Of a stretch of 21,058 bases of DNA, positions 653 to 18,200 are shown in pieces. The stretch comes from a virus. The notes under the pieces were generated by a model. It was not told the DNA's origin. It saw only the letters and a list, made by a program, of their open reading frames with translations, and did no database searches. How positions within the stretch are numbered: the stretch's first letter is position 1; each line of letters begins with the position of its first letter. Position numbers and translations under genes: made by a program. The stretch spans positions 1-21,058 of IMG/VR virus record IMGVR_UViG_3300028806_000042; one strand, given 5' to 3'.

Positions 653-906
653 GTTTACATCCTGCGCGAGATGAAGCGGAAGCTAAGAAGAAGAGAGAGA
701 CAATAGAGTTATGCGGAAAGAACCGTGGGCCACATGATTATATACCGATTGAGTGGTCACATAAAAAAGATGAAGATGGAAAAGAGTATAAACGTGTGTC
801 ACGATTCTTATGTAGGGTTTGTTTTAATAACGTTAACACAATAACCTTACTTAAAATGTATAAAGATGTTAGCGAAGAGACTGCAAAAAATCACGATACT
901 TTTTAA
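649..906 (+). CDS. Small Cys/His protein, possible zinc finger (85 aa)
   Basis: The function is unknown. The protein is highly charged and carries C22, H29, C55 and C58 (C-x6-H-x25-C-x2-C). This layout could bind one zinc ion, like the small zinc-ribbon proteins common in phage accessory regions. The segment between the halves (IEWSHKKDEDGKEYKR) looks like a charged loop. No membrane segment is present. The ATG overlaps the TGA of the Tad2-like gene (ATGA), so the two are probably translated together. Its last 38 bases lie over the end of the lysozyme gene on the opposite strand. Zinc binding is inferred from residue spacing only. Confidence 0.7.
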   Translation: MSLHPARDEAEAKKKRETIELCGKNRGPHDYIPIEWSHKKDEDGKEYKRVSRFLCRVCFNNVNTITLLKMYKDVSEETAKNHDTF

Positions 907-1345
907 TAGATTCGTCTTTCTGTGCAGCACCTTTTGGGGTATTGTAATATTTCTTATAGTAATCCCAAATAGCGTTTATATCATTAAAAGCTGGCAAAGC
1001 TGCCTGCACTCTTAAATAGAATATCCTAGTCATGGCGGTTGCAAATCTAAGGTCATAGATCAATCTACTTTCTGGTGGCATTCTGTTTACATCGAAGTTA
1101 TTACATAGCCGTAATGCTAATTTATTATCCATTAGAATGAAATTATGCCATATATCATTATATGTCATTGGTTCCATTTGATAGATACCCAAGGCGGGGC
1201 CACTGACTTGATGAAGGTAAGTCCCACCTCTAGATTCAACTGCGCACGTGAATACCATTAACTCTTCTGCTTCTTGAGAATATAACAACAAGTCAGACAA
1301 GCTAGACTTTACTATAAGGTCACGAAATTGATTAATGTTTAACAT
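869..1345 (-). CDS. Lysozyme-like / soluble lytic transglycosylase-type enzyme
   Basis: This 158-residue protein carries the lysozyme-fold signature seen in many podophage muralytic proteins: A-V-E-S-R-G-G (residues 35-41), where E37 is the candidate catalytic acid, then GPALGIYQMEP (49-59) and a Tyr/Trp-rich tract ending in YYNTPKG. The likely role is cleavage of glycan strands in peptidoglycan. There is no signal peptide or membrane anchor, so release would need a holin or virion packaging; neither partner is visible nearby. It is the only credible gene on the reverse strand in the window. It diverges from the terminase gene (41 bases between start codons) and converges on the 649-906 gene. 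No good ribosome site precedes the ATG; the nearest purine run (AAAGAGA) is about 18 bases away, so expression may be low or the start may differ. It could be the endolysin, or a stand-alone equivalent of the transglycosylase domain of T7 gp16. Confidence 0.75.
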   Translation of the reverse strand: MLNINQFRDLIVKSSLSDLLLYSQEAEELMVFTCAVESRGGTYLHQVSGPALGIYQMEPMTYNDIWHNFILMDNKLALRLCNNFDVNRMPPESRLIYDLRFATAMTRIFYLRVQAALPAFNDINAIWDYYKKYYNTPKGAAQKDESIKKYRDFLQSLR

Positions 1346-2427: not shown

Positions 2428-4080
2428 ATGGATACAACGCAAGGAATGCCGATTGTAGCAATGCCCGCGAATTCGCTACTTGAAACGCTGCGCAAACGCT
2501 ATAATGCTGCTAAGTATATTGCTGACCTATGGATACCTATACAACAAGCTTCATATTTCTACTGTATTCCTTTCAGAAATAGATACTATTTGCCTGGTAA
2601 AGAATTTCAAGGAACGATTCAGAACACACGAGTTTACGACACAACCGCAGTAGAAGCTGTTACTAATTTCGTCTCCAAAATCCATGACACGATGACACCC
2701 CCACAAACACAATGGGGATTCTTAGAAATTGATGAAGCAATGGTTGATGATCCGTCTTCAGAAGATAATCTGGAAATGATGGAAGAAGGTCAGATGATTC
2801 TGGATACCTACATGCGTAGGTTATTCAGTTATATTCATGATTCAAATTTCGATGTCACTATTAATGAATGTTACTATGATCTTGCCGTAGGCACTAGCGC
2901 ACTTGTCATCAATCAAATTAATGATGAAATGCCGTTTATGTGTACGAGCATTCCCGTTGATAAGTTAGCTATTGAAGAAGCGGTCAATGGCAATGTAGAA
3001 TCCTGGTTTAGAACCTGGCAGAACTTAAAGATAGCAGAACTTAACACCCGTTGGCCGAATATTGTTATTACTCCAAATCTTGCATCGTTATTATCAAGTG
3101 ATCCTGATGCTGTTATTAGAAACATTTATGAAGGTACGGCATACTTTGCTAATCAACCGCAGAAATATGTATACGCTGTCTGGGCTGATAATGATTTACT
3201 GTATGTACAATGGTTAGATTCTTCGCCTGGTATTGTCTGGCGTTGGAAGAAGGTCAATAATGAAACCTGGGGCCGTGGCCCTGTAATGGAAGCTTTACCG
3301 TCTATAATTAGTTTAAATGAAATGGCGAGGGTTGAACTTGCTTCTGCTAATCTTAATACTTTTAGGCCCTATATGGGATTTAGTGATGCTGTGTTTAATC
3401 CACACACCTTTAAACTCGAACCATTTACAATTATACCTATCTCTCCAATTGGCAGTAATGGCCAAGTGCCTCTTATTCCCCTACCTAATAGCGCAAGTCC
3501 TGAATTTGCACAAATGACAATGGCTGATCTGCGAATGCAGATTAAGCAATTACTTTATGCTGAACAACCTCAAGATTCTAAGAGTGTACAGCCACAAACA
3601 GCTTATGAGTTGGCTATGAAGCAATCAACTTTAGCTGAAAAGATCGGCCCTATATTTAGCCGTATGCAGCAAGAGTTCTTATGGCCTGTAGTCAAACGCT
3701 TTGCGTTTATCCTAAATTCAATGGGTTTATTGCCCTATCCAGAAGTGGGTGGCATGCCTATCAAATTTAGATATAAGTCACCGTTGGCTCTTGCTCGTGG
3801 TCGAGCAGAGGTTGAGAAGTTCGTGCAGTACGTTCAGGTCATGCAAGGAATCATGGGGCCGGAAGCGTCTCAACTTTATATCAATCCGAAGACAACGCCA
3901 TACATGCTTGCGGAACTCTTGCAAATTGATGAGCGTTTCCTGAATAAGCCAGACGATGTCGCTAAAGTCATGCAGCAAATACAGAACAAACAAAGTTTAA
4001 TGGAACTCGCAAACCCTGCTGGCAGTATGCCAGAAGCAGCCCCAAACCCAAGCGCACAACCTATCGCAACAGCACAATAA
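2428..4080 (+). CDS. Head-to-tail connector (portal) protein, T7 gp8-like
   Basis: At 550 residues it is close to T7 gp8 (536). It carries the family hallmark W-G-R-G-P-V-M-E-A-L-P followed by S-L-N-E-M-A-R at about residues 281-301. Upstream are the mixed alpha/beta clip and wing sequences, and a long C-terminal helical part ends in a Pro/Ala/Gln-rich tail (about 528-550). Twelve copies would form the ring at one capsid vertex through which DNA is packaged and ejected and to which the tail binds. It lies between the terminase-like region and the scaffold, the standard place in the assembly block. The ribosome site before the ATG is modest (AGGCGG, a few bases away), so it may be coupled to the previous gene. 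Confidence 0.95.
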   Translation: MDTTQGMPIVAMPANSLLETLRKRYNAAKYIADLWIPIQQASYFYCIPFRNRYYLPGKEFQGTIQNTRVYDTTAVEAVTNFVSKIHDTMTPPQTQWGFLEIDEAMVDDPSSEDNLEMMEEGQMILDTYMRRLFSYIHDSNFDVTINECYYDLAVGTSALVINQINDEMPFMCTSIPVDKLAIEEAVNGNVESWFRTWQNLKIAELNTRWPNIVITPNLASLLSSDPDAVIRNIYEGTAYFANQPQKYVYAVWADNDLLYVQWLDSSPGIVWRWKKVNNETWGRGPVMEALPSIISLNEMARVELASANLNTFRPYMGFSDAVFNPHTFKLEPFTIIPISPIGSNGQVPLIPLPNSASPEFAQMTMADLRMQIKQLLYAEQPQDSKSVQPQTAYELAMKQSTLAEKIGPIFSRMQQEFLWPVVKRFAFILNSMGLLPYPEVGGMPIKFRYKSPLALARGRAEVEKFVQYVQVMQGIMGPEASQLYINPKTTPYMLAELLQIDERFLNKPDDVAKVMQQIQNKQSLMELANPAGSMPEAAPNPSAQPIATAQ

Positions 4081-4089
4081 GAGGACTCA

Positions 4090-4413
4090 ATGGATCAAGA
4101 CCAGAAAAACCCGTTTTTGGAACAAGAAGATTACTTTGCCGGATACAAGAAAAACATAGATGCCTTACGAAATGACCCAAACCTCATTGAGTTAGATACA
4201 CTTTGTTTTGAACTTTTTGGATTAAATGAACAGGGCAAAAAATTCTTGGAATTAGCAACAGACCGTTGGCTCTATCCGGCATTAGCTAAACCTGGGACTG
4301 CAACCTATCAAATAGATGTTCTCTGGGCCGAAGGATTTAAGGATTTCATAAGAATGATCCGTATGGCGATTGTTACTCATACTCAACGTATTAAGGCGGT
4401 TCAAGCACCATGA
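4090..4413 (+). CDS. Small protein between portal and scaffold (Bbp19-like)
   Basis: This 107-residue soluble protein has a central F-x-L-F-G-L-N-E-Q-G-K-K-F-L-E-L block (about residues 41-56) and a later G-F-K-D-F-I-R-M-I-R block (about 85-94). The arrangement resembles the Bbp19-like family (named after a Bordetella phage protein), which lies in the same place between portal and scaffold genes in many podophages and has no settled function. The similarity is by recall of pattern only. GAGGA at 4081-4085 supports the start. Its TGA overlaps the ATG of the scaffold gene (ATGA at 4410-4413), so the two are translationally coupled. It may help in head assembly. Confidence 0.7.
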   Translation: MDQDQKNPFLEQEDYFAGYKKNIDALRNDPNLIELDTLCFELFGLNEQGKKFLELATDRWLYPALAKPGTATYQIDVLWAEGFKDFIRMIRMAIVTHTQRIKAVQAP

Positions 4414-5081
4414 CAGATGAAAACCAAGATCAACCGAAATGGTTTATTGATGAAGGATTACCTGGGGTTGGTGATAGACCTACGTGGTTGCCTGATAAGT
4501 TTAAGAGTGTAGCGGATATGGCACGTAGTAATGCAGAGCTTGAGAAAAAGCTAGGAAGTGTACCTGAAAGTTACGACTTTACTAAGTCTAGGTTCCTAGA
4601 TCCTGACTATGTACCGTTTCAGGAACTTCAAGTAGCAGCTAAGGAAAAGCGGGTACCTCAAGAATTTATCGACAAAATGATAGAATCAGTAGACAAGTAT
4701 GTTGATGAGTTTAGAACAGATAACACAGAAGAATTAAAGAAGTTGGGTGATAATGCTAGAGAACGAATCGGTATACTTGATAATTGGGCAAAAGCCAATC
4801 TATCTAAAGAATCTTATGAAGCATTAACGAATAATTTAAACACTGCGGATTCAGTTAAAGCACTCGAAGAGCTGAGAGGTAAAATGATGTCAAACGTTAC
4901 GCAAGTACCCAATAACCAAGGCAATGTATCGGGTGGTCAATCGGTTGATGATATTAAGATGGAACTTCAGAATAACTTACAGAAATATAAGACCGATGAA
5001 AACTATCGTAAAGACCTCACGAAACGTTTAGAACTCGCTGCAAAATCTGCCCCTGGCTATGTAGATAAAGTGGGAGCATAA
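4410..5081 (+). CDS. Capsid assembly scaffolding protein, T7 gp9-like
   Basis: This 223-residue acidic, helical protein begins with a conserved podophage scaffold pattern: R-P-T-W-L-P-D-K-F-K-S-V (about residues 23-34), then A-E-L-E-K-K-L-G and V-P-E-S-Y-D-F (about 52-58). The rest is rich in charged helices, with a Gln/Asn linker at about 166-178 and a basic C-terminal helix, the part that binds coat protein in other scaffolds. It guides procapsid formation and leaves before DNA is packaged. It is shorter than T7 gp9 (307). It directly precedes the coat protein gene, with a 117-base leader between them, and overlaps the preceding gene by four bases. Confidence 0.88.
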   Translation: MTDENQDQPKWFIDEGLPGVGDRPTWLPDKFKSVADMARSNAELEKKLGSVPESYDFTKSRFLDPDYVPFQELQVAAKEKRVPQEFIDKMIESVDKYVDEFRTDNTEELKKLGDNARERIGILDNWAKANLSKESYEALTNNLNTADSVKALEELRGKMMSNVTQVPNNQGNVSGGQSVDDIKMELQNNLQKYKTDENYRKDLTKRLELAAKSAPGYVDKVGA

Positions 5082-5198: not shown

Positions 5199-6032
5199 AT
5201 GTCCACTTCATTGACAGCCGTACAACAAATTGAATTTGATGCTCTAGTTAAAGCCGAATACCAATCGCTTGGGTTCTTATTAAGAGACACCGTGCGAGTT
5301 CGCAGAGACGTTATAGGCGCCTCTGTATCCTTCAGAAAAGTAAACCAGATTCAGGCAGTGCCCACTGGCTACTTACAAACTGTAGTCATTCAAGACCCAG
5401 GTTATACGCAACAATCAGCTATCTTACAAAAGTACACTGCACCTACCGCAGTAGATTCAGTACAAGAACTCACTGTTAACTTTGATGCCAAGATGGAAAA
5501 TGCCATGCTTGTCGCAAATGCGTTAGGCAGACGTTCAGATCAAATCATTATTAACTCACTAGCAGTCAGCCCAGGCCAGACCATTGTTGATGGCGGTACG
5601 AATCTGACCTATGTGAAATACACACAAGCTATTCAGTTTTTCGATAATAATGCTGTGCCACTTCCAGAACGGTTTGCGGCAATTTCTGCAAGTAACTTTC
5701 AGAGTTTATTACAAGCTGACCAGTTTATTTCAACCTTCTATACCCAGAATCGCGTATTAGATAAGGGTTTTGTCCGTGATTATCTCGGCGTCAATATCAT
5801 CATCATTCCAGAAATGGTAGAGGGTGGATTGCCGTTTGCTTCTAGTAATATCAGAGAGACTTTTTTCTGGCATAAGCAAAGTACGGGTATGGGAATCGGC
5901 CATGATTTCAGAACAGAAATTAACTATCTACCTCGTGAAACTTCCTGGTTAGTTAATGGCATTTTCTCTGCTGGAGCTATCACCATTGATAATTTAGGTG
6001 TGCTACAGATCAATGCAGATGAAGCTGTATAG
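5199..6032 (+). CDS. Major capsid (coat) protein
   Basis: This 277-residue protein sits right after the scaffold gene. It has the features of podophage coat proteins with the HK97-type fold: an N-terminal helical arm, the segment Q-A-V-P-T-G-Y-L-Q (about residues 52-60), the A-N-A-L-G-R-R-S-D-Q-I-I helix (about 105-116, a common coat-protein spine-helix motif), and a C-terminal beta part (IFSAGAITIDNLGVLQINAD). It is shorter than T7 gp10A (345). Many copies form the icosahedral shell. AGGGG nine bases before the ATG and the separate leader fit high expression. The assignment rests on position and motif rather than a direct match to a named coat protein. Confidence 0.9.
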   Translation: MSTSLTAVQQIEFDALVKAEYQSLGFLLRDTVRVRRDVIGASVSFRKVNQIQAVPTGYLQTVVIQDPGYTQQSAILQKYTAPTAVDSVQELTVNFDAKMENAMLVANALGRRSDQIIINSLAVSPGQTIVDGGTNLTYVKYTQAIQFFDNNAVPLPERFAAISASNFQSLLQADQFISTFYTQNRVLDKGFVRDYLGVNIIIIPEMVEGGLPFASSNIRETFFWHKQSTGMGIGHDFRTEINYLPRETSWLVNGIFSAGAITIDNLGVLQINADEAV

Positions 6033-6053
6033 GACTTAGTTAGAGGGTAGAAT

Positions 6054-8327
6054 ATGGCATTTACTAATGCAAACTGGACGTGCGTATCTGCTTCTTTAAG
6101 CCAAGGACAGCAGATTGTCACACCATTTGAAGGGTCATCCACCATACTGAATGCACCTAATATATTTATGTATGGCAGTCCTAATGATATAGTTTCTGTT
6201 ATCCATACTGCTAATTACTTTCTGACTAAATATGCTTCTTTAAATGTTGGTGATTGGATAATGGGATATGGAACTGATGGTAGTTTCATTTTTCAAGTCA
6301 CCTCTTCATCACCTACTTCAGTTACCGTGATAAACGTACTTGGCACTGAACCTTTAACAATCGTAGTGCCGACAAATAATACGATTCTCGTTACACAACC
6401 TAGCCCAGATGTTTTCAGTGTCGCTAGTAACTATCAAGCGGGTACTGGAATAACGATCACGGGAAATGTCATTGCTGCAACGGGTGGTGGTGGTTCAACC
6501 ATTGTTGAAGCAACCGATGACACCATTACGGTGACAAATCCAAGTACAGGTGTGTATTCCATCGCAGCCACTCCTTACACTGCTGGCTCTGGAATTACTA
6601 TTGCAGATTTTGTTATCACTGCAACTGGGGGTGGCGGGGGATTTGTTGGTTATCCTAGCTACCCAATTAATTTAGATGATGAACCGACAGGCACTTTTAC
6701 CATACATAATAATTTGCCTGCGGAGATAACATTTACAACGACCGGAATCGGAGCCACTATTGTTGCACCTCCAGATTACACGATGGAAACACAACAAACT
6801 TATTTACCCGTGACAATTACTAATAGTTTGAGTTCGACAGTACCGTTTGGCCTGGGAGTTAATCTAGTATATCCAGGTCAATCGTATAATTTATATCCCA
6901 CTAATTATACGAGTTCCGACGGTGGTGTTATAGCTATTGGTTATCCAATTTCTAGACCATCAAGAGTAAATGGTGGTTCTATTGTGGTCACATTAAATGA
7001 TAATAATTCTATTATTTATGCGTCAAATAATGGCGGTAATGCAAGTATAATTTTACCAGATACCAGTAATTTACCTGAAAATTTCACGACATATATAGTG
7101 ATTCAGGGAATTGTAGGCAGTACTTTTAGCTATACATTTATGCCGAATGGATCTGATACAGTCGCAGGAACAAATGGTTTAGGTGATACTTTCAATTTTG
7201 CTGCGGGCATTTATTTTCTTGAGTTAGTTTATGCAGGAGGTAGTTCCTTATCAACATGGGTATATAATTTTAATCCAGCAAACGAACCAACGATACATAG
7301 TTTTTTTGGGAATCCAAATGGAAATGTTGCAGGACTTGTCAACGATCTATCCGTGAATGTGGCGGGACAAACTCTTTATTTATGCATCTTAGCAGGAGAC
7401 GCTGCAAGCGCTCAGTGGGTTTTGGTTGGAGGTTATCAAGCAGGCAGTGGAATTAGTATATCTAATAGTACTATATCAGCGACTGGCGGCAGTATCCCAA
7501 GTTTTACAGGTGTGGCTTATAACACTGCCGGAACACTCACCGCAGCAACACCGTCTCAAGTAACAACGGCGGCGTTGTTAAATCCCAATCTAGTAAACAT
7601 TTTTCAAGCTAGTGGCGATATTAATTTAGATGATACGTCTGGACAAACCTTATTGATTGGTTCAGGTTCTACTGGCACAAACTTATATATGCCTGATCCA
7701 ACATCAACTAATCCGTGGGCGGAAGGCCGTCCATATTTAGTGATGATGGCTAAAACGGCGCCTAGTTTCATTTTTGAACAAATGAATGTCAGAAATTTTG
7801 GTGGTGTTCAAATCGTTGACATTTTTGGCTTACCGATTACAATGACACCCTGCGACAATTGGATATTTTGGTTTAATGGCACTGCCGGAGTGGGTTATTT
7901 ACTTTCGAATAATGCTACAGAAACTCAATCTTACATGGCACTTGGACAGTGGTTTTCAACGACAGGCGCGACTATTCCGACTATTCAGCAAACCTTTTCT
8001 TCGACTGTTGTTTATGGGCCAGCGGGAATGCTTTACGTTAATTATGTGATACCTGCATTTTATGCATCATTACTTGCTCCTTCTTCTTTTGTCTTCCAGA
8101 CAACGTCGCAAACTAATTTTCCTGTTACTGCATTTCCAGGCAGCACCAGTCAAGGAATACCTGTAATTAATAGCAGTATTAATGGGGTAGGGCTTGTTAC
8201 AGTTGATAGATTGGCTGTAGGAGGGCAAGTTCTTGTGAATGGCAATACGGGCGGAGGAGACTTTGGTACAGGAAATGTGGTTATCGGGCCGATATCAATT
8301 ATGGCACCGATAACACTACCGTTTTAA
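6054..8327 (+). CDS. Large beta-rich structural protein, probable head fibre or accessory tail protein
   Basis: This 757-residue protein is rich in Gly, Thr, Ser, Asn and Val, as in fibrous beta-structured virion proteins. Residues 1 to about 93 (MAFTNANW, then a GDWIMGYGTDGS block) form a domain that recurs at the start of the next gene, so the two share a paralogous anchor. A motif Y-x-A-G-[TS]-G-I-x-I, ending in A-T-G-G-G or similar, occurs three times, at about 127-147, 175-195 and 461-480. Such motifs are typical of trimeric fibre shafts. The C-terminal part (about 640-757) has no recognised domain. It lies between the coat protein and tail tubular protein A, so it could be a head fibre, capsid decoration or accessory tail protein. 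A GAGGG ribosome site precedes the ATG. The structural role is well supported; the exact location on the virion is not. Confidence 0.8.
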   Translation: MAFTNANWTCVSASLSQGQQIVTPFEGSSTILNAPNIFMYGSPNDIVSVIHTANYFLTKYASLNVGDWIMGYGTDGSFIFQVTSSSPTSVTVINVLGTEPLTIVVPTNNTILVTQPSPDVFSVASNYQAGTGITITGNVIAATGGGGSTIVEATDDTITVTNPSTGVYSIAATPYTAGSGITIADFVITATGGGGGFVGYPSYPINLDDEPTGTFTIHNNLPAEITFTTTGIGATIVAPPDYTMETQQTYLPVTITNSLSSTVPFGLGVNLVYPGQSYNLYPTNYTSSDGGVIAIGYPISRPSRVNGGSIVVTLNDNNSIIYASNNGGNASIILPDTSNLPENFTTYIVIQGIVGSTFSYTFMPNGSDTVAGTNGLGDTFNFAAGIYFLELVYAGGSSLSTWVYNFNPANEPTIHSFFGNPNGNVAGLVNDLSVNVAGQTLYLCILAGDAASAQWVLVGGYQAGSGISISNSTISATGGSIPSFTGVAYNTAGTLTAATPSQVTTAALLNPNLVNIFQASGDINLDDTSGQTLLIGSGSTGTNLYMPDPTSTNPWAEGRPYLVMMAKTAPSFIFEQMNVRNFGGVQIVDIFGLPITMTPCDNWIFWFNGTAGVGYLLSNNATETQSYMALGQWFSTTGATIPTIQQTFSSTVVYGPAGMLYVNYVIPAFYASLLAPSSFVFQTTSQTNFPVTAFPGSTSQGIPVINSSINGVGLVTVDRLAVGGQVLVNGNTGGGDFGTGNVVIGPISIMAPITLPF

Positions 8328-8352
8328 TTTTAATTTTATAGGAGTTTTAAAC

Positions 8353-9234
8353 ATGGCTTTTACATTAAACAACTGGGCGTGTATCTCTTCATCAATGAAT
8401 GAAGGTCAAATCACAGTAACGCCTTTTGGCGGTTCACCGACAGTAGAGAACGCACCAAACGTTTTTACCTATGGCAGCCCTGGGGATACGATTGGTACAG
8501 TATCCGCAGCAAACTATTTCCTAAGTATGTACGCTAGTTTAAGTGTAGGAGATTGGATTCTCGCCTCAGGTTCAGATGCAAGTAATATCCTGCTAGTCAC
8601 TGCTGTTTCTCCAACCTCTGTTACTGTAGGAAGTTTTGGGGCTTCTGGAACGGTGGGTACTGCTAATATCATCAACAACGCAGTGACCTATGCGAAGATG
8701 CAGCAAGCATCCGTTGGAGATGTTTTATTGGGCAATCCAACAGGCGGTGTTGCTAATTACCAAGAAGTAACACTTGGCACTGGGTTAGCGTTTGTGGGAA
8801 GTGCATTAACATTAGCGAGCAATGTGATTAATTATGCTGAAGTTTCGCTATCAGCAGCACAATTCAATGGTATGTATGCAGCACCAGTACTATTAGTTGC
8901 AGCCGCAGGCGCTAATCAGCTTCTTGTTGTAGATAAGTTAGTCCTAGAAATGACCTATGGAACTGTTGCTTATGCTGCGGGTGGTTTTGTTGCTGCACAA
9001 TATAGTCCAACAATAAATGGAGCTGGGCTTGCGGCAACAAATACAGAAACTTCAGTAGATTTCTTTACTACTGCAAGTACATCGTTTGTATTTAATGGAG
9101 CAATAGGGCCATTGCCATTCGCTAACACAGTAAATGAAGGTATATATCTATCTAATGTGACAGGAGCATTTACGACTGGTGATAGCACTTTTACAGCTAA
9201 AGTTTGGTACAAAATAATTCCAAGTAATGCTTAA
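8353..9234 (+). CDS. Structural protein with duplicated N-terminal domain (head decoration/fibre type)
   Basis: This 293-residue protein starts with a domain (residues 1 to about 95) clearly related to that of the preceding gene. Shared blocks include MAFT, N-W-x-C, A-P-N-x-F, Y-G-S-P, A-N-Y-F-L, Y-A-S-L, V-G-D-W-I and S-P-T-S-V-T-V. It is followed by a linker common in phage fibres (A-V-T-Y-A-K-M-Q-Q, then LLGNPTG and LGTGLAF; about 110-152). A C-terminal beta domain (about 160-293) begins L-S-A-A-Q-F-N-G-M-Y-A-A-P-V, a form often seen in phage surface proteins. The pair probably arose by tandem duplication of the anchor, with different outer parts. It likely decorates the capsid or tail. 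AGGAG precedes the start. No catalytic motif is seen. Confidence 0.8.
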   Translation: MAFTLNNWACISSSMNEGQITVTPFGGSPTVENAPNVFTYGSPGDTIGTVSAANYFLSMYASLSVGDWILASGSDASNILLVTAVSPTSVTVGSFGASGTVGTANIINNAVTYAKMQQASVGDVLLGNPTGGVANYQEVTLGTGLAFVGSALTLASNVINYAEVSLSAAQFNGMYAAPVLLVAAAGANQLLVVDKLVLEMTYGTVAYAAGGFVAAQYSPTINGAGLAATNTETSVDFFTTASTSFVFNGAIGPLPFANTVNEGIYLSNVTGAFTTGDSTFTAKVWYKIIPSNA

Positions 9235-9257: not shown

Positions 9258-9863
9258 ATGGCTTATTCTAAGACTAGTATTATCAGCCTTGCTGTAATGC
9301 TGCTTGGCCATAAGCCAATTATTTCTTTAGATAATGCAGATGATATGGTGATATCTGCTGAACAAGCATTCGATATTCTATTGCCTAGTGTATTAGGAAC
9401 TGGAAACTGGCGCTTCTCGATTCAGATTCAGCAACTCACTCTATCAACTGAAGTGCCACCCCCACAGACTAACTTTCAGCAAATTTATTTATTGCCCGCA
9501 GGTTATCTTAAAAACATACGCATTATTCCACAAAACTATGTATACGAAATCTACAGTAACAATCAAATCTGGTGTAACTGGGGAACGCAATCACCGATAT
9601 ACATGGAATATGCTTATTTACCTGATATATCGCAATTGCCAGCGACTTTTGTAAATTATTTTATTTATGAGATTGCAACATTCTTATCATTGTCGAATGC
9701 TCAAAAGCCAGATTATTTCCAAGCACTTGAACAGAAGAAAAATACACAATGGGCTATTGCTGCTGCTGCGGATGCACAAAATAGACCACAGTGGGTTGAT
9801 TACAATATTCCAATGCTAACCAAGCGAAATATTACGGGAATCATTGGGCCACAGATAGGTTAG
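9258..9863 (+). CDS. Tail tubular protein A, T7 gp11-like
   Basis: At 201 residues it is close to T7 gp11 (196). It has the family pattern: an N-terminal helix with L-L-G-H-K-P-I (about residues 15-21), A-x2-A-F-D-I-L-L-P-S-V-L-G, G-N-W-R-F-S (about 49-54), the Y-L-L-P-A-G-Y-L strand, and a C-terminal helix ending in Q-W-V-D-Y. It forms the ring between portal and nozzle in T7-like tails, the gatekeeper that keeps DNA in. It precedes the tail tubular protein B gene by ten bases, the same order as T7 genes 11 and 12. A GAGGG ribosome site supports the ATG at 9258 over an out-of-frame ATG five bases earlier. Confidence 0.93.
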   Translation: MAYSKTSIISLAVMLLGHKPIISLDNADDMVISAEQAFDILLPSVLGTGNWRFSIQIQQLTLSTEVPPPQTNFQQIYLLPAGYLKNIRIIPQNYVYEIYSNNQIWCNWGTQSPIYMEYAYLPDISQLPATFVNYFIYEIATFLSLSNAQKPDYFQALEQKKNTQWAIAAAADAQNRPQWVDYNIPMLTKRNITGIIGPQIG

Positions 9864-9873
9864 GGATTATGAA

Positions 9874-12432
9874 ATGCCATATACATTATGGTCACAGGAT
9901 ATTTTCTCTAAAGGTGAACTCAGCCCTCTTATGTATGGGCGTGTCACCGTCAATGAATATAACAACGGCTTAAAGACCGCACAGAATGTTTTGACCTATC
10001 CAACGGGTGCTGCCGGAAAACGCTTCGGTACCCTTTACCAATCGACTTTAACTGGTTTTACACTCTTCAATCAAATTTACTTCAACACTTTCCAATATCT
10101 CAATGAATGCGTTTACCAATTACTTTTTACACCACTAAATATTTATATCTACCTTGAAGGGTTATTAGTTGCCACTACTTCAACCTCATTAACACCTTTA
10201 AACGTGTTTAATATGTCAACGACAGTTTTAGGCCCAATATTTAGAACGGCTGGTGTAGGTTTCGTACCAACAGATTTAACTCGTGGGCCGAATGCGGCAG
10301 TTGATATCACCGCTTTTACGACTAACACATTTTCAACGACCATAGCGACTTTTACTGCTGGTGTTGTGATGCCAGTCAAATTTGCTGTTACGGGTGGCAC
10401 GGTCATGCAGACGACACCACAGATAACAGTCGGTGTGACTTACTTTGTTGTTGCAAGTAGTCCTACTGAAGCAGTGTTATTTAATACCGCCGTAGAAGCC
10501 AAAGCCTACATTATTAATCCGGCAGACACTTCAAATGTGATAACTATTCAAAGCCTAGGTACTGGAACGACAACCGTAGCACCACAAAATACATGGTCAT
10601 TCGCACCCGCTAGATTTAAGAACCTACCAGCCTATGATTTCAATGGTGCGGTAGTTTCTTATGATGACCAAACGTTTACCCCAGGTGCAACTACAGGTGC
10701 TAATGTAACTATAACTGTATCACCAGGATATTCTCTATTAGACGCTTCTTATGTAGGAGGTGCATTCAGGGGTGGAGGTGGCACTTCACGTATAATATCT
10801 GTAGCTAGCACAACATCATTTAATGTATCTATTCAAGAACCTTTTGATGCGATTACTGCAATTCAAGGCAGTCTTGCGCTTTTACAAGAACCTGCATGGA
10901 GTGATAAACGTGGATGGCCGCAAGTGGCTTCTAGTTATCAGAATCGAGCTTTATTTGCTAATACCACAAGTTTGCCTAATGGCTTCTGGGGGAGTGCCAT
11001 TAATGATTATACTGACTTTGGTGATTTAACGACTGATGATGATGATGCTATTTCGTGGTATCCCACATCGGCAAACATGAACTTCATTCGATTCATCGTT
11101 CCCTATCGCAGTGTTACGGTACATAGCAACACAGGTATTTATTCAAGCCCTTTATCTGATATTGCAGCGATTACCCCATCAAACTTTACTTTGCAATTAC
11201 AAGATTCAACCCCTGCCGATGTCTTGCAACCACAAGCTGTAGACAATCAAATCTTAGTACTATCAGGTAATGACGCTCATCAAATGCTCTGGGATGGTAT
11301 AAACAATGCATATACCTCTAACATTGTTTCAGTCATTAACGAACAAACAATTCGTAACCCAGTCGATGAAACAGCGTTTGCAGACTTACACCGTGCTGGC
11401 AGTCGATTCGTTTTTATCATTAACGCCGATGGCTCAATGGCTATTTTTCAAACTCTTTTGACGCAAGGGGTATCAGGCTTTGTTCCGGCTATCATGGAAC
11501 AATCTTATGGACATGCAGCATTCTTACAAACTGGCAGTAGTTCAGATGGCAGATGCTGGTTTGTCGTTCAAAGAGAAATTGCGACTGCTGGATTTTCTGT
11601 TGCATTAACTGGTATTACGTCACCTTATGTTCTACAAGCTACAAGTAGTAACTTTCCAACAGATTCGCCTACATTAGTAAAATTCTCAACTACAGGTACT
11701 CTAGCAACTACTATTCCACAAATTAATACAACTAACTATTATTGGGCAGTTGGTGTAGATGCTAATGATCTCATGGTTTATCTGACTCAAGAGGATGCTA
11801 TTAACAATATAAATCCTATTCAATGGATTAGCATAGGTACAGACAATCTCATTGCAGCATGGACTTTGTCAACCATATTCACATTAGAAGAGTTGACAAA
11901 AGAGGTGTTCCTAGACTGCGCCGTGCAATACGTTGGAACGCCAACATCGACTATTACAACTGGCGTTCTATTCAATGGGCAAGATATTAAGATGGTCGGT
12001 GATGGTTATGGGTTTGATTCATCCGCAGAAGACAATGTAAGTAATGTTGTCAATTTTGTGGCTCACGGTCAACCCGTTCAAGTGTCTCAAGCTTTCATAG
12101 GGTTTCCGATTAACACCATTATGCAACCTATGCCTCTTAACATTTCTAGTGGCCCATCGTCCAAAGAGACAACCCTGACTAAACCTAAGCGTGTAGAATG
12201 GGTAAGATTTATGTTCAACAATACCATTGGTGGTACAATTAATGGTGTGCCAATCGCTTTGGAACCGTTTGATATGGCCATGATTGGCGAACCTCCATTT
12301 CCTGCTAGAGGTATATTTGAAATGAGTATAATGAAAGGGTGGGATGACTTTAATAACCCAACCTTTACGATTGAACATAATGATCCATTCGATATTCAGT
12401 TGCTAGGCGTTTTCTATTCGGTTGTGACTTAA
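9874..12432 (+). CDS. Tail tubular protein B (nozzle), T7 gp12-like, with inserted beta domains
   Basis: At 852 residues it is slightly longer than T7 gp12 (794). The N-terminus shows the family signature F-S-K-G-E-L-S-P-L-M-Y-G-R (residues 11-23), then N-V-L-T-Y-P-T-G and K-R-F-G-T (49-53). The central propeller-like part includes W-x2-R-G-W-P-Q-V and Q-N-R-A-L-F. Two stretches resemble each other and a small beta domain common in phage tail proteins: about 165-235 (VKFAVTGG, PQI, TYFVVAS) and about 596-655 (VKFSTTGT, PQI, YYWAVG). The second lies between VVQREI and EEVFLD-like nozzle sequence (FTLEELTKEVFLD), so it looks like an insertion. Six copies form the tail nozzle that carries DNA and binds fibres. 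An AGGGATT ribosome site precedes the ATG. Confidence 0.93.
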   Translation: MPYTLWSQDIFSKGELSPLMYGRVTVNEYNNGLKTAQNVLTYPTGAAGKRFGTLYQSTLTGFTLFNQIYFNTFQYLNECVYQLLFTPLNIYIYLEGLLVATTSTSLTPLNVFNMSTTVLGPIFRTAGVGFVPTDLTRGPNAAVDITAFTTNTFSTTIATFTAGVVMPVKFAVTGGTVMQTTPQITVGVTYFVVASSPTEAVLFNTAVEAKAYIINPADTSNVITIQSLGTGTTTVAPQNTWSFAPARFKNLPAYDFNGAVVSYDDQTFTPGATTGANVTITVSPGYSLLDASYVGGAFRGGGGTSRIISVASTTSFNVSIQEPFDAITAIQGSLALLQEPAWSDKRGWPQVASSYQNRALFANTTSLPNGFWGSAINDYTDFGDLTTDDDDAISWYPTSANMNFIRFIVPYRSVTVHSNTGIYSSPLSDIAAITPSNFTLQLQDSTPADVLQPQAVDNQILVLSGNDAHQMLWDGINNAYTSNIVSVINEQTIRNPVDETAFADLHRAGSRFVFIINADGSMAIFQTLLTQGVSGFVPAIMEQSYGHAAFLQTGSSSDGRCWFVVQREIATAGFSVALTGITSPYVLQATSSNFPTDSPTLVKFSTTGTLATTIPQINTTNYYWAVGVDANDLMVYLTQEDAINNINPIQWISIGTDNLIAAWTLSTIFTLEELTKEVFLDCAVQYVGTPTSTITTGVLFNGQDIKMVGDGYGFDSSAEDNVSNVVNFVAHGQPVQVSQAFIGFPINTIMQPMPLNISSGPSSKETTLTKPKRVEWVRFMFNNTIGGTINGVPIALEPFDMAMIGEPPFPARGIFEMSIMKGWDDFNNPTFTIEHNDPFDIQLLGVFYSVVT

Positions 12433-12984: not shown

Positions 12985-15210
12985 ATGGCTGACTTAGAAC
13001 AATCAAAGCATGTTTCAGAAATTCCAGCCGGACAGCCATTGCCAGGGCCGTATCAACGCAGAGTAAAACCTGAAGTAACACCTTTCCCAGATATTCAAAG
13101 AGCCATGAGTGACTATGCTTCAAACACTAATTGGATGTCATTCATCGGATCAGAAGTAGCATCCCGTGCATCCAATGCTCTTGCTGAACGGATTGGCGGT
13201 GAGCTTGGCAAAAACCCTAAAGGTAATATTGGCATACCTATTACTGACTTTGATAAAACAATGCAACAGAGTTATAACACCCAAGCTCAAGCAACGTTAG
13301 GTTTACAAGCTAATAAATTAATTAATGATTCTAATATTATAACAGCTAAAGCTAATCGTATTACCCCAGAATTGATTGATAAAACAAATCAGAGTATTGC
13401 TAATGGTTTAAAGAACATTTTAAAAAATGCGCCAGATGAAGTTAAACCGCACATGGAGTTTCAGTTTGGTAATGCCATGCTCGACCAGTCGGCTTCATTA
13501 ACTAAAAGAATGCTTAGAGAGCAAAGAGAAGACCAGAAGAATAACAATGCTTTTGCAAGCGATATGAATGCTCAACATGCTTATTCATTCGGATTAAATG
13601 GTAATGAAAAGGCAGCACTTGCGGCAATTGAAAATACACGTAAATTAAACAACGCTTCGGTTGCTGCACGATTGATTAGTCCTGAAGATGCAAAAACAAA
13701 TATTGATGCTGCAAATAAAAGTTATCTAAGCGGCAAAATGATTCGTGAATATGAAAAGGCACATGCTGAAGGAAAAGGAGAAGAATATTTAAAATCAATT
13801 GCAGATAAAAAACCTGATTACCTAAGCGATACAAATTATCTAGCAGTCACAAATAATTTAATGAATTATGTTAATCATCAACAAGCATTGCGCTCACAAG
13901 ATGAACAATTAAGGTTAACTCAATTTCAAAGTAGTGTGGCCATGAATCCAATGGCCCCCAATATAACATCACAACTTCAAGATTTAAAAAATAACGTATC
14001 TGCAAATGCTTATGAGAAAGCACAACTTCACTATATAGATGCAGTTAAAAAATATACTAGAGAACAGGGTAATGATAATGAAGCATTAGCTGCTTGGAAT
14101 GATCCTAGAGCATTCTCTCGACAACCTCAAAAAGCTATAGATAGAAGTTTTGACAAACAGGTTACAGCCTATGTAAAGCAACGTGATCAACAAGGAAACC
14201 CTATTAGTGTAGATGAAGCAGAAGTTCAGATTGCAGCATCGGCAGGTGGACGAGTTCCTGTATTTGAAAAGTCAATTGAAAATAAATTATTAAGTGGAAA
14301 TCCTGCTAACATCGTTTCAGCTACAAATCAAATTGGGATGTTAAGAAGTATGGAACAAGGCCGAGTCTTTGATCGCATACCTCAAAAAGCTAAAGCTATT
14401 GCTGCTTTATTTGAAGAACAACGTGGTTCAATGCCTGACACTGATTTAGCCCGCCAGATCACTGATAACTTATCCAATATCGATGACAAGATGCAAAAGA
14501 CTTTAGATAATTCTTGGAGTTTACTACTTTCAGCTAAAGGTGCGGGTGGTTTAGGTGCTGGTAAGTCATTAGCTAACTTTGCACTTAAAGAAGTTGGTTT
14601 AGATTCAAGGCACAATGAAAAACTGGGTGGTGCTTATTTTGGTACAATTTATGGCAATGATATTTACAACCAATTGAATTCAAACTTCATTGCAACCCGT
14701 GGTGACTATCAAGCTGCTTTGAAAATGACGCAAGATTATGTCGATCAACATTATGGCGAAACGTATGTTAATGGTTTCAAGCAAACTACCGATAGTCCGA
14801 TTGAAAGATATTTAGGATATAAAGGCGATGCCATTACACCTTATGTTCAAGAGGATTTACTCAATCAACTTTCAACTTCATTCGCTGAAGCAAAGAAAAA
14901 TTATCCAGATGATTACTGGGAAATAATACCATTAAAAACAGGTAATGAAACTTTAAAGCAAAACTTATTTAGTCAGGGTGGTGCTGAAGTATCGCGCCAT
15001 ATTCGTACGAAAGACGGTATGAAAGAATATCGTTATCCAGTAGAACTTGTAGGGAGAGCCGGAAACCAATGGGATGTAGTTCTCAAAACTCCTTATGGTC
15101 AACGCAATCTGTTTTTAGTAGCCCCCCATGTAGGTGTCACAAGTTATCAACCGAATAAAGAAGCTATTGAGAAAAGCTTTAAAGCTAACAAAGGGAAAGG
15201 GTGGTTGTAA
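12985..15210 (+). CDS. Internal virion protein, T7 gp15-like
   Basis: This 741-residue protein is almost the same size as T7 gp15 (747) and lies in the matching place. It is hydrophilic and strongly helical, rich in Gln, Asn, Ala and Lys, with no signal peptide, membrane helix or enzyme motif. In T7 the equivalent forms a ring in the ejected periplasmic channel together with gp16. The N-terminal part contains Q-R-R-V-K-P-E-V-T-P-F-P, and the C-terminus has a Gly-Lys-rich tail (NKGKGWL). It is preceded by a weak AAGG site. Its TAA shares one base with the ATG of the next gene (TAATG), so the two are coupled. The assignment rests on length, composition and order, because this family diverges fast. 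Confidence 0.85.
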   Translation: MADLEQSKHVSEIPAGQPLPGPYQRRVKPEVTPFPDIQRAMSDYASNTNWMSFIGSEVASRASNALAERIGGELGKNPKGNIGIPITDFDKTMQQSYNTQAQATLGLQANKLINDSNIITAKANRITPELIDKTNQSIANGLKNILKNAPDEVKPHMEFQFGNAMLDQSASLTKRMLREQREDQKNNNAFASDMNAQHAYSFGLNGNEKAALAAIENTRKLNNASVAARLISPEDAKTNIDAANKSYLSGKMIREYEKAHAEGKGEEYLKSIADKKPDYLSDTNYLAVTNNLMNYVNHQQALRSQDEQLRLTQFQSSVAMNPMAPNITSQLQDLKNNVSANAYEKAQLHYIDAVKKYTREQGNDNEALAAWNDPRAFSRQPQKAIDRSFDKQVTAYVKQRDQQGNPISVDEAEVQIAASAGGRVPVFEKSIENKLLSGNPANIVSATNQIGMLRSMEQGRVFDRIPQKAKAIAALFEEQRGSMPDTDLARQITDNLSNIDDKMQKTLDNSWSLLLSAKGAGGLGAGKSLANFALKEVGLDSRHNEKLGGAYFGTIYGNDIYNQLNSNFIATRGDYQAALKMTQDYVDQHYGETYVNGFKQTTDSPIERYLGYKGDAITPYVQEDLLNQLSTSFAEAKKNYPDDYWEIIPLKTGNETLKQNLFSQGGAEVSRHIRTKDGMKEYRYPVELVGRAGNQWDVVLKTPYGQRNLFLVAPHVGVTSYQPNKEAIEKSFKANKGKGWL
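15191..15200 (+). promoter_or_regulatory. Ribosome binding site that decides the 15210 start
   Basis: The purine run AAGGGAAAGG ends nine bases before the ATG at 15210 but directly abuts the in-frame GTG at 15201. The spacing therefore favours the ATG, which also makes the usual TAATG junction with the previous stop. Confidence 0.75.
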
Positions 15211-18200
15211 TGGATACTGAAACATCTATTGAGATCACACCCCAAAATCCATTCACTATAGATATTCCCACTAAAGAAGGTGAAGATCAAGGTATCGGTT
15301 ATCCTGGTTATCCTGTAGAGCCAGAAAAGGTTGGCTTTGTCAAAACTGCACTAAATGAATTTAAAGAAATGTCTTCCGTATCTCATTTATTACATTGGGC
15401 AAATGCACCATTAACTAAGCCAGCCGGATTAGAAGTCCAATCTCTCTATCCTGAAGTGAATGACAAGTTTTATAATCCACCGCCTGATGGCTGGTCGCCT
15501 AAACAAGAAATAGAAAAATTAAGTGATATATTAGACCCTAAGTTCATTCCTAAGTTATTAAATACTAAAAGTCCTGATGATTTTAACTATCAATTAGATA
15601 GTATCAATGAGGAAGCCATACGAACACATGAACTAGAAAATGGCTCAACACTTGCCAAGATTTTGGGAGGTGGAATAGGACTAACGCTAGGCAGTATTGA
15701 AAACTTGATCCCATTAGCATCCATTGCGACTAAGGCAAAATTCGGTACAGGGTTTGTATCTGCTGTACTAAAAAGTTCACCTAGCATTTTAGCGGCGTCT
15801 GCTATCCATGAAGGCGCAGTACAGATGGATAAAGTAGAAGGAAACCTATCTGAATTTCTGAAGGATACATTCATTGATACCGCTTTTGGCGTCACATTCT
15901 TTGGACTAATAGGTGGTGGAAAGTCATTAATCAATCTAGTTGAGTTTAATAAATTAAAACAATTTGGTAGAGATTGGTTAGATGGAATCGGTTTTAATTA
16001 TAAAGTTGATAAGAAAGGCAACCTATTAGGATTTGAAGCAGTAGACACAACAGGTTCCTTAAGTGCAGCAAAAGTCACTCGCGCACAAGAACATGCTGAT
16101 TCGGCATTCTATAAGGGTGGATTGTTTAAACTTCCTTATGTGGGTGATGTCGCACTTGCTGCCGTATCTGGAAATATCCCTGGGTTAAAATATATCTTCG
16201 GTTCTCCATTAGTTCAGTTAAAAACGTCTGACTATAAAGCTGCTAATGCTTTTGCTGATGCAGCGTTTGATCACTTCATCACGACTGAAGGTGAAGCTAA
16301 AGGCGGTGTTAGACCTAAGAGTTTTGAATTAAAAGTAAAACAAACAAGGGCTGCATTAACTGCTCTTAAGGTTCAGACAGATGCCTTACATGCTGAAAGA
16401 AATGGCTATAGCATTACTGCACGGCCAACACTAAACATTCAGAATGCTTGGAGTGCGATCAAACAAAAGTCGATTGAAACTCTATCTAAAGAATCTAAGA
16501 CTACTAATTATGTAGGACGTGAAGAATTCATGGATGAAATACAAAAAGTTTTATATTCTAAAACATCCAGTGAACATGCTGCTGTCAATGATGCTGCTGC
16601 ACTTTACCGTAAGATCATTGATGATACCTGGGCTGATTATAGAAAAGCTTATAACCTTCCTGATGACTGGCTTCCACCTAGAACGGCTGAAGCTTATTTG
16701 ATGAGAGTTTATAACACACCCTTCTTACAAGAAACCCAAGGTTTATGGATGCAAACTGTTTCTAAATGGCTTGCTGATTCAGACGAACTCATTACCCAGA
16801 AAATGAAACCTATACATGATTTAGAATCTCAAATTAAAGATTTTGAAGTTGCTCACACCAAAGCCGTTGAAGAATTAGGAAAGAGAGAAGCAAAACTTAA
16901 TCCTGGTACAGAATATGTCACCACTGAAGTAGCACGTAAATTAAATCGTCATAAGTATCAAGAACGTTTAACGGCTGGAATTAATGAAATACCAGGACAA
17001 GTTGAAACGCTAGCATCTTCAGAAATGGCAGTCGATGAGAAACATATTGTGACACTAGCAGATATGAAACAACAGTTAAGAACATTAAAAGATAATCTGC
17101 AAAATGAATTGAGAAGAAATCCTGAATATAATATTCATGTAGATAATGTTCATGCACTCTCTGCTGATGAGGCGAAAGCACTTAAAGGAATTCTAACACC
17201 GCTTAATAATTTGAAAAAACAAATTGATGAACAACAACAAATAGTATCTGAATTAAAGAAAAAGAAATCTCGTAAATTAGCTACGACTAAAAAACAAGAA
17301 ACGACAGAGAAAGCAAAACCTCACGCAGAAGAATATCTCGAACAAGAAGAAAATATCAAAAAGGAAGAAGCTAAACTCCATGAATTGAAAATGGCACATG
17401 CTGATGAAGAATATAATCTTTATGATAAAGCGAGAAGTGGCCAGATTAATCCTAGACTTTATTATCCTGAAAACTTTAAATTCAAAGATGTGAATGACAG
17501 ATTAAAGTTTAGAGATGTTTATGGTTCAGATATTTACCGCAACAATGCAGCTAAAGCTTATTACGATTCAATTATGCACATGCAACCTGAAGATATTGTC
17601 TCTGATGTGTTTGGAAAAGTTATGGGGAATTCTGATTCAAATCCATTAAAACAACGAACTTTGATGATTCCAGATGAAATTCTTTATAACAATAATTTTC
17701 TGACGAAAGATGTTTTTGCCAAGACTGCCAATTATGTTAACTATCTTTCAAGACGGACTCACTTAAAAACATCGTTTGAGAATGTAACGGTCAATGGAAA
17801 CTTTGAAGAACTCGCTGAAAACCTTTTGACTGAATATCAATCAAGACGGGATGTCATCAATAATAAAATAGAAAAATTGACTGATCCTAAAGAGATTGAA
17901 AAACAAAAGAAATTGTTAAGAGAAGAAGGTGTCAAGTTTGATAAAATAAAAAAAGTTATGAGAAATCTATTTGAAAATAGAATGATGGGTATTAATAAAA
18001 GAAACGACTTTGACTTGATGGCTAGACGTTCATGGATGGCTTTAACTGCTGCATCTAATTTACATAATCTTCCCGCCACACAAATAACCGATCTTGCCTG
18101 GGGAGGGTTTCAACATGGTTTATGGCCATACGTAAGAGATGGTATCTATCCTCTCATGCAAAGTTTAGGTGGTATGTTAAAGACTAAAGATGCTGAAGCT

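What the first reader, a model, noticed from the sequence alone, without database searches (positions are those of the whole stretch)
6054..9234. Tandem structural genes with a duplicated N-terminal anchor domain
The first roughly 93 residues of the 757- and 293-residue proteins are clear paralogues with many identical blocks, while the rest differs. This implies a shared docking domain carrying two different outer modules, perhaps competing for or sharing the same site on the capsid or tail. Ratio control between them could vary virion surface properties.
Basis: seen in the sequence. Interest (0 to 1): 0.5.

Follow-up and report, generated by a model that had tools for sequence, protein, structure and literature searches.

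The report
Two capsid fibres, one shared dock
This virus of bacteria carries two neighbouring genes whose proteins start with the same capsid-gripping domain but end in different outer parts, so one virus shell can probably wear two kinds of surface fibre, whereas nearly all the relatives examined carry only one.

Summary
Residues 1-92 of the 757-aa protein (A, 6054-8327) and the 293-aa protein (B, 8353-9234) are 60% identical (E=7e-33); the rest differs.

The shared domain has a solved relative: chain H (orf16) of PDB 9eg4, the icosahedral capsid of phage LME-1 (Legionella). Seven orf16 and seven major-capsid chains are listed, and only 89 of 269 orf16 residues are modelled in chain H, the stretch that matches this domain. 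Predicted folds of both window domains match it: B Z 13.4, A Z 11.3. By homology it is a capsid-docking domain.

In relatives the slot between the major capsid gene and tail tubular protein A holds one anchor gene in 102 of 107 distinct loci, none in 2, two in the window, three in 2 others (87 of 92 after stricter clustering). Outer parts range from nothing to about 640 residues; two of three long ones scanned resemble tail fibres.

Best explanation: A and B are two head-decoration proteins displayed on one capsid lattice. Co-display, stoichiometry and ratio control are untested. Tandem duplication is unresolved: each anchor resembles other phages' anchors more than its neighbour, but pairing is not rejected (p-AU 0.25).

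The parts
5199..6032 (+). major capsid protein, 277 aa (PF19821), the presumed docking partner
   Evidence: Pfam E=2.3e-46; PHROG major head protein E=4.9e-38; matches 9eg4 chain A, 'Phage major capsid protein', E=4.1e-25
6043..6046 (+). likely ribosome-binding site (GAGG) of gene A
   Evidence: read from sequence; 7 bases before ATG
6054..8327 (+). gene A, 757 aa: anchor domain plus long unique outer part
   Evidence: ORF; no relative of residues 96-757 found
6054..6332 (+). anchor (capsid-docking) domain of A, residues 1-93
   Evidence: 60% identical to B; AF2 block pLDDT 94-96 over residues 41-90; matches 9eg4_H Z 11.3, rmsd 1.6, 78 residues, 30% identity; keeps all 7 positions that are invariant in the 33 other anchors of alignment A5
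6432..7487 (+). span with three short repeats of A (residues 127-144, 175-192, 461-478; Y-x-AG-x-GI-x-I-x4-I-x-ATG), perhaps shaft elements
   Evidence: pattern search by script; meaning inferred
6945..7298 (+). possible spike/adaptor beta domain of A, residues 298-415
   Evidence: weak: block pLDDT 34-70; best structural matches T4 baseplate chain 5iv5_AC (Z 8.6; gp10 by recall), a KP1 baseplate protein (8.4), CBA120 TSP4 (7.7), Pa223 capsid spike (6.7)
8340..8344 (+). likely ribosome-binding site (AGGAG) of gene B
   Evidence: read from sequence
8353..9234 (+). gene B, 293 aa: anchor + linker + jelly-roll-like outer domain; full-length relative of LME-1 orf16
   Evidence: profile A2 against 9eg4_H, positions 1-291 to residues 1-269, E=2.5e-69; AF2 mean pLDDT 80
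8353..8634 (+). anchor domain of B, residues 1-94
   Evidence: 9eg4_H Z 13.4, rmsd 1.5, 78 residues, 35% identity; phrog_18004 E=1.1e-5
8809..9231 (+). outer domain of B (ctB), residues 153-293
   Evidence: beta model; matches include phage capsid/cement proteins KHP30, GP4, KHP40 and Pam1 at Z 6.8-7.6, i.e. ambiguous; also present in proteins without a detected anchor
9258..9863 (+). tail tubular protein A (TTA) homologue, closes the slot
   Evidence: PHROG 394 tail protein E=6.6e-20

Best explanation
Genes A and B encode two head-decoration (head-fibre) proteins of a T7-like podovirus. Each begins with the same ~90-residue domain, which clips onto the outside of the major capsid protein lattice; behind it A carries a long, unique fibre/spike-like part and B a short linker and a jelly-roll-like head. 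Both domains should fit the same sites, so a single capsid would display a mixture of two surface appendages, most likely for adhesion to cells or surfaces. Shown: homology of the two domains, matching predicted folds, homology to a domain modelled in a solved capsid, conserved gene slot, varied outer modules on the same dock, recurrence of multi-gene sets. Inferred: that A is expressed and incorporated, that the sites are the same, that the outer parts are adhesins. Unknown: stoichiometry and ratio control.
For: Anchor profile hits 9eg4_H residues 1-87, E=8.8e-19; B-family profile hits it full length, E=2.5e-69. The entry is the LME-1 icosahedral capsid, with 7 orf16 and 7 major capsid chains and 89 residues of chain H modelled. 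Anchor folds of B and A: Z 13.4 and 11.3; the next rows, 7.9 and 8.6, concern other parts of the models. Slot: 105 of 107 distinct loci have anchor gene(s) between capsid gene and TTA; the two without are Vibrio phages. The domain alone (81-109 aa) fills the slot in 7 of the 102 single-gene loci, including Methylophilales phage MEP301 and Pelagibacter phage Hodr, so docking seems to need no outer part. Anchors close to A (74% in L085, 70% in L083, 68% in L084) are the only anchors found in phages whose capsid protein is 94-95% identical to the window's, so A-type anchors fit this kind of lattice. Outer parts of L204 (594 aa) and L188 (406 aa) match PHROG tail-fibre families; a third, L127, matched nothing. 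Multi-gene sets also occur in L204 and L205 (three genes each), whose capsid protein is 40-41% identical to the window's.
Against: No virion data for this phage. A757 is known from one metagenomic contig, so a misassembly or a recent non-functional insertion cannot be fully excluded. Window and LME-1 domains share only 30-35% identity in the aligned region, and the capsid contact residues could not be compared. The fold of most of A's outer part is not predicted (557 of 757 residues under pLDDT 50). ctB's structural matches are at the level of common arrangements (Z under 8).
Confidence: 0.75

Rival explanations
1. A is a specialised protein that uses the same fold to dock at a different place (portal vertex, pentons only, or the neck), so A and B do not share sites.
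For: The two anchors differ at 40% of positions, and nothing here locates A. Site-selective decoration proteins are known: passages read in PMC11821841 describe a Hoc-like protein confined to some hexamers of Sf14.
Against: Anchors close to A are the only anchors found in phages with capsid proteins 94-95% identical to the window's, and in the LME-1 entry orf16 has as many chains as the capsid protein.
Confidence: 0.15
2. Ordinary gene replacement in progress: A is a recently captured alternative decoration gene that will be lost or is not expressed; only B works.
For: 102 of 107 distinct loci keep one gene. A's anchor is closer to other phages (up to 74%) than to B (60%), as a captured gene would be. 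Endonuclease VII genes sit beside the anchor gene in six loci, pointing to recombination in this slot.
Against: A is an intact 757-codon frame with its own likely ribosome-binding site and all 7 anchor positions that are invariant in the 33 others compared. The three-gene sets of L204 and L205 keep their first two genes as counterparts (71% and 69% identical), so multi-gene sets persist.
Confidence: 0.2
3. Tail fibres anchored on the tail rather than the head.
For: Position next to tail genes; short repeats in A; weak structural match of A residues 298-415 to tailspike and baseplate proteins.
Against: The anchor's only strong structural and sequence relative is a capsid component with as many chains as the capsid protein.
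Confidence: 0.04

Closest known systems
orf16 of Legionella phage LME-1 (PDB 9eg4 chain H)
   Same: Same anchor domain, linker and ctB; homologous capsid protein; anchor modelled in the capsid while the outer part is not.
   Different: I saw two molecules of the entry (chains A and H), not its full list; the window adds a second anchored protein with an unrelated outer part of about 660 residues. No paper on the structure turned up in the held library.
Hoc (T4), pb10 (T5), gp12 (SPP1), gp8.5 (phi29): adhesive decoration proteins (review PMC7602432, passages read)
   Same: Capsid-bound proteins said there to enhance binding to cell surfaces.
   Different: No sequence match to them appeared in the searches made; the passages read do not describe paralogues sharing one dock.
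Shigella phage Sf14 with two decoration proteins (PMC11821841, passages read)
   Same: Two decoration protein types on one capsid.
   Different: Sf14 gp33 (beta-tulip) and gp20 (Hoc-like) have different folds and sites; here both proteins share one docking domain.
Multi-tailspike sets with related anchor domains, such as CBA120 TSP1-4 (recalled; only TSP4 appears in a call, 79)
   Same: Several outer modules attached through a common kind of anchor (recalled).
   Different: Those sit on the tail; this dock is on the head by homology.

Membership tests
LME-1 orf16 family (B293) | anchor domain | tested here: met
LME-1 orf16 family (B293) | C-terminal ctB domain, match along full length | tested here: met
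   A2 profile 1-291 aligned to 1-269 of 9eg4_H, E=2.5e-69
LME-1 orf16 family (B293) | bound to capsid, as many copies as capsid protein | not testable with these tools
   true of 9eg4 by chain counts; no virion data for the window phage
LME-1 orf16 family (A757) | anchor domain | tested here: met
LME-1 orf16 family (A757) | C-terminal ctB domain | tested here: not met
   no ctB hit in A in three searches; A shares the dock only and is not filed as an orf16 orthologue
anchored decoration slot (gene between major capsid gene and TTA) | gene position | tested here: met
   A and B both lie there
beta-tulip, OB-fold or Ig-like decoration families | fold of the capsid-binding domain | tested here: inconclusive
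   only 9eg4_H stands out for the anchor; absence from the lists does not exclude them
phrog_18004 (unknown function) | profile match of the anchor | tested here: met
   30 of 38 anchors at E<=0.01, best 9.9e-14; window B anchor 1.1e-5. Whole A did not hit it at E 1

The most novel reading that the evidence does not exclude
Some podoviruses build mosaic capsids: a set of two or three paralogous docking proteins with different adhesive heads, including tail-fibre-like ones, compete for the same capsid sites, so each particle or population shows a mixed and tunable surface. Such sets arose at least twice from a one-gene slot and are fed by exchange of outer modules with tail fibres.
Probability: 0.45. 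Interest if true: 0.7.

Novelty: new variant of a known kind. Interest (0 to 1): 0.5.

Why it matters
It gives a likely function and a solved template (9eg4) to a small family of unknown function (phrog_18004) that sits after the capsid gene in many podoviruses. It shows a natural plug-in dock on a capsid that, in relatives, carries outer parts from none to about 640 residues, and names three contigs (the window, L204, L205) where several plug-ins coexist, which makes mixed head decoration directly testable. It may also serve as a docking tag for displaying proteins on such capsids.

Tried and rejected
Search for relatives of A's outer part: none in phages or in an IMG/VR pattern scan; best PDB sequence match E 0.19, an auxiliary capsid protein, not significant; no Pfam match at E 1 and three PHROGs at E 0.096-0.73, not significant. 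With composition correction switched off, A aligned to the 594-aa protein of L204 at 21% over about 690 columns, E 4e-9; this stretch includes part of the anchor and low-complexity sequence, the corrected search against the earlier set, which lacked L204, had found no relative, and I do not count it. A guess that A holds the repeated domain of L039 and L127 failed (HMMER best E 0.008 at 4.6 bits in maximum-sensitivity mode against four pieces, hhalign probability 0.2%), and two stretches of A that looked alike by eye did not match each other.

Recent tandem duplication of A and B: the free tree does not pair them, but the AU test does not reject pairing (p 0.253, 94 columns, 50 rows; the test was set after seeing the tree, which had unstable long branches). 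Unusual divergence of the window anchors: not seen; at capsid identity 88-96% the median anchor identity is 68.5% for 628 other pairs (5th-95th percentile 54-83%), 62.6% for A (29 pairs) and 66.3% for B (29 pairs).

Host: two genome-contig scans (capsid alignment A6, and LME-1 orf16) found no relative, so the host and any prophage form are unknown. Promoter and terminator scans gave about as many sites as shuffles (15 against 15.5; 4 against 3.2). Counts drop 30 of 222 loci without a TTA gene and 85 duplicates; near-identical loci from different contigs remain, and clustering at about 90% of the anchor protein leaves 92: 87 with one gene, 2 none, 1 two, 2 three. The loci came from searches with B, the anchor, the capsid protein and two relatives, so frequencies are not population estimates; L204 and L205 came from a search started from L051 because it showed a second anchor at its cut end. 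Two later IMG/VR scans for more such sets found the L204 and L205 contigs again plus three weak hits in other contigs and are not in the counts. The VIA-align and Foldseek lists are capped; families missing there are not excluded. Literature: ten searches used; no title in the lists shown describes paralogous decoration proteins sharing one capsid dock (one search showed 10 of 197 papers), and 9EG4 is named in no held paper.

Full report
What is there. The window (a virus record of 21,058 bases) holds structural genes of a T7-like podovirus: portal 2428-4080, scaffold-like 4410-5081, major capsid protein 5199-6032 (PF19821), gene A 6054-8327, gene B 8353-9234, tail tubular protein A (TTA) 9258-9863 and tail tubular protein B 9874-12432. 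The names rest on Pfam and PHROG hits; 'tail tubular' follows the annotation of the same slot in phage MEP301.

The observation. A and B share residues 1-92 at 60% identity, E=7e-33, without gaps. Beyond that BLAST finds no relationship. The coordinates and lengths are exact.

What the shared domain is. A profile of 38 anchors finds PDB 9eg4 chain H, 'orf16', E=8.8e-19, over its residues 1-87. A profile of 33 full-length B relatives finds it over its whole 269 residues, E=2.5e-69. The window capsid protein finds chain A of the same entry, E=4.1e-25. The entry is titled 'Cryo-EM structure of the icosahedral capsid of LME-1 phage'; it has seven chains of each of these proteins, which suggests a T=7 lattice with one orf16 per capsid protein (inference), and chain H has 89 modelled residues, 2-90 in the alignment. 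LME-1 is described as a phage-like integrative element of Legionella pneumophila (PMC9765430, passages read; see also PMC5071653, passages read). So the domain is the part of orf16 that is ordered in the capsid.

Do both copies fold alike? AlphaFold2 gave B a mean pLDDT of 80 and A's anchor block values of 94-96 over residues 41-90, though the rest of A is poor (557 of 757 residues under 50). Against 9eg4_H the anchor of B scores Z 13.4, rmsd 1.5 over 78 residues, that of A Z 11.3, rmsd 1.6 over 78. The next rows are 7.9 and 8.6 and concern other parts of the models.

The slot in relatives. Five IMG/VR scans and named phage records gave, with the window, 222 loci with the capsid gene; 30 lack a TTA gene, 85 are duplicates, 107 remain. 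Between capsid gene and TTA, 102 have one anchor gene, 2 have none (the Vibrio phages L076 and L077), the window has two, and L204 and L205 have three each. Stricter clustering leaves 92 loci: 87, 2, 1 and 2. A further contig, L051 (also fetched as L203), close to L204, is cut within its second anchor gene. Of the 102 single genes, 7 are the domain alone (81-109 aa), 79 carry ctB, 16 carry something else. Lengths reach 735 aa (L127). MEP301 gp30 (88 aa) and Hodr 003 (81 aa) are the bare domain; Dunaliella virus SI2 has a 164-aa version. So the dock occurs without an outer part and with many.

Outer parts. ctB is modelled as a beta domain with structural matches to phage cement and capsid proteins and to many other beta proteins at Z 5.9-7.9, a level that may mean only a common arrangement. 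ctB also ends proteins in which no anchor was detected; in L034 one such gene lies between two genes with tail-fibre PHROG hits. Of three long anchored proteins scanned, the outer parts of L204 (594 aa) and L188 (406 aa) match PHROG tail-fibre families and L127 matches nothing. In A, residues 298-415 match phage baseplate and spike proteins weakly (T4 baseplate chain 5iv5_AC Z 8.6; KP1 8.4; CBA120 TSP4 7.7; Pa223 capsid spike 6.7) at low model confidence, and three repeats of the form YxAGxGIxIxxxxIxATG occur. An adhesive, fibre-like role is the natural inference, in line with host-adhesion decoration proteins reviewed in PMC7602432 (passages read).

Would A fit this capsid? Anchors most like A belong to L085 (74%), L078 (73%), L083 and L134 (70%) and L084 (68%). 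L083, L084 and L085 show one anchor gene each and capsid proteins 94-95% identical to the window's; L134 has 92% and L078 87%. B's nearest relatives include L084 (95%) and L103 (94%). Thus both kinds of anchor are used by phages with nearly this capsid. Capsid proteins in this group stay similar while anchors vary: at capsid identity 88-96% anchors have a median identity of 68.5% (628 pairs). The A-B difference (60%) lies inside that spread.

Origin. The anchor of A is closer to other phages' anchors than to B's and the tree does not pair A with B, but 94 columns do not allow rejection of a pair (p-AU 0.253). Capture from another phage or old duplication both remain open. Seven distinct loci of the set have a gap over 250 bases beside the anchor gene; in six of them (L020, L084, L106, L115, L198 downstream, L167 upstream) a minus-strand endonuclease VII gene (PF02945) lies there; the seventh (L137) was not looked at on that strand. 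This marks the slot as recombination-prone (inference); no causal link to extra copies is shown.

Mechanism proposed. Late in infection both proteins are made from one run of genes behind the capsid gene, each with its own likely ribosome-binding site. Their anchors bind the outer face of the lattice; outer parts project and are flexible, as the unmodelled part of orf16 suggests. Because both anchors should recognise the same surface, occupancy would follow supply and affinity, giving a mixed coat. Expression, site sharing and the mixed coat are inference; the docking step rests on homology to a solved capsid.

Novelty. Modular decoration proteins are known, and so is a capsid with two different ones (Sf14, passages read). 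Two or three paralogues on one dock were not found in the searches made. I rate it a new variant of a known kind.

Noticed in passing
L204 2257-5819 and L205 6001-8452: Three tandem anchor genes between capsid gene and TTA; the first two have counterparts in the other contig (71% and 69% identical), the third differs (594 aa, tail-fibre-like, in L204; 222 aa with ctB in L205).
   Followed up: partly
L020, L084, L106, L115, L198, L167 beside the anchor gene, minus strand: Endonuclease VII genes (PF02945) next to the decoration gene in six distinct loci, five downstream and one upstream.
   Followed up: partly
L041 4740-5408, L049 4722-5405: ctB with a weakly similar anchor lies downstream of a terminase large-subunit gene in other phages (in L041 a portal gene follows), hinting that the anchor fold is wider than this capsid family.
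   Followed up: partly
window 15201-19259: 1352-aa protein with only a PHROG of unknown function (phrog_16310, E=2.4e-23); size and position suit a large internal virion protein (inference).
   Followed up: no
window 869-1345, minus strand: 158-aa reverse-strand ORF, largely outside any long plus-strand ORF, that matches a PHROG of unknown function (phrog_3108, E=4.8e-36); by eye its start recalls a lysozyme or transglycosylase (recalled, untested; no Pfam hit).
   Followed up: no
window 19279-20631: 450-aa probable tail fibre (by position and look only; no PHROG at E 0.001 or Pfam at E 0.01); it matches a 590-aa protein next to a ctB gene in L030.
   Followed up: no
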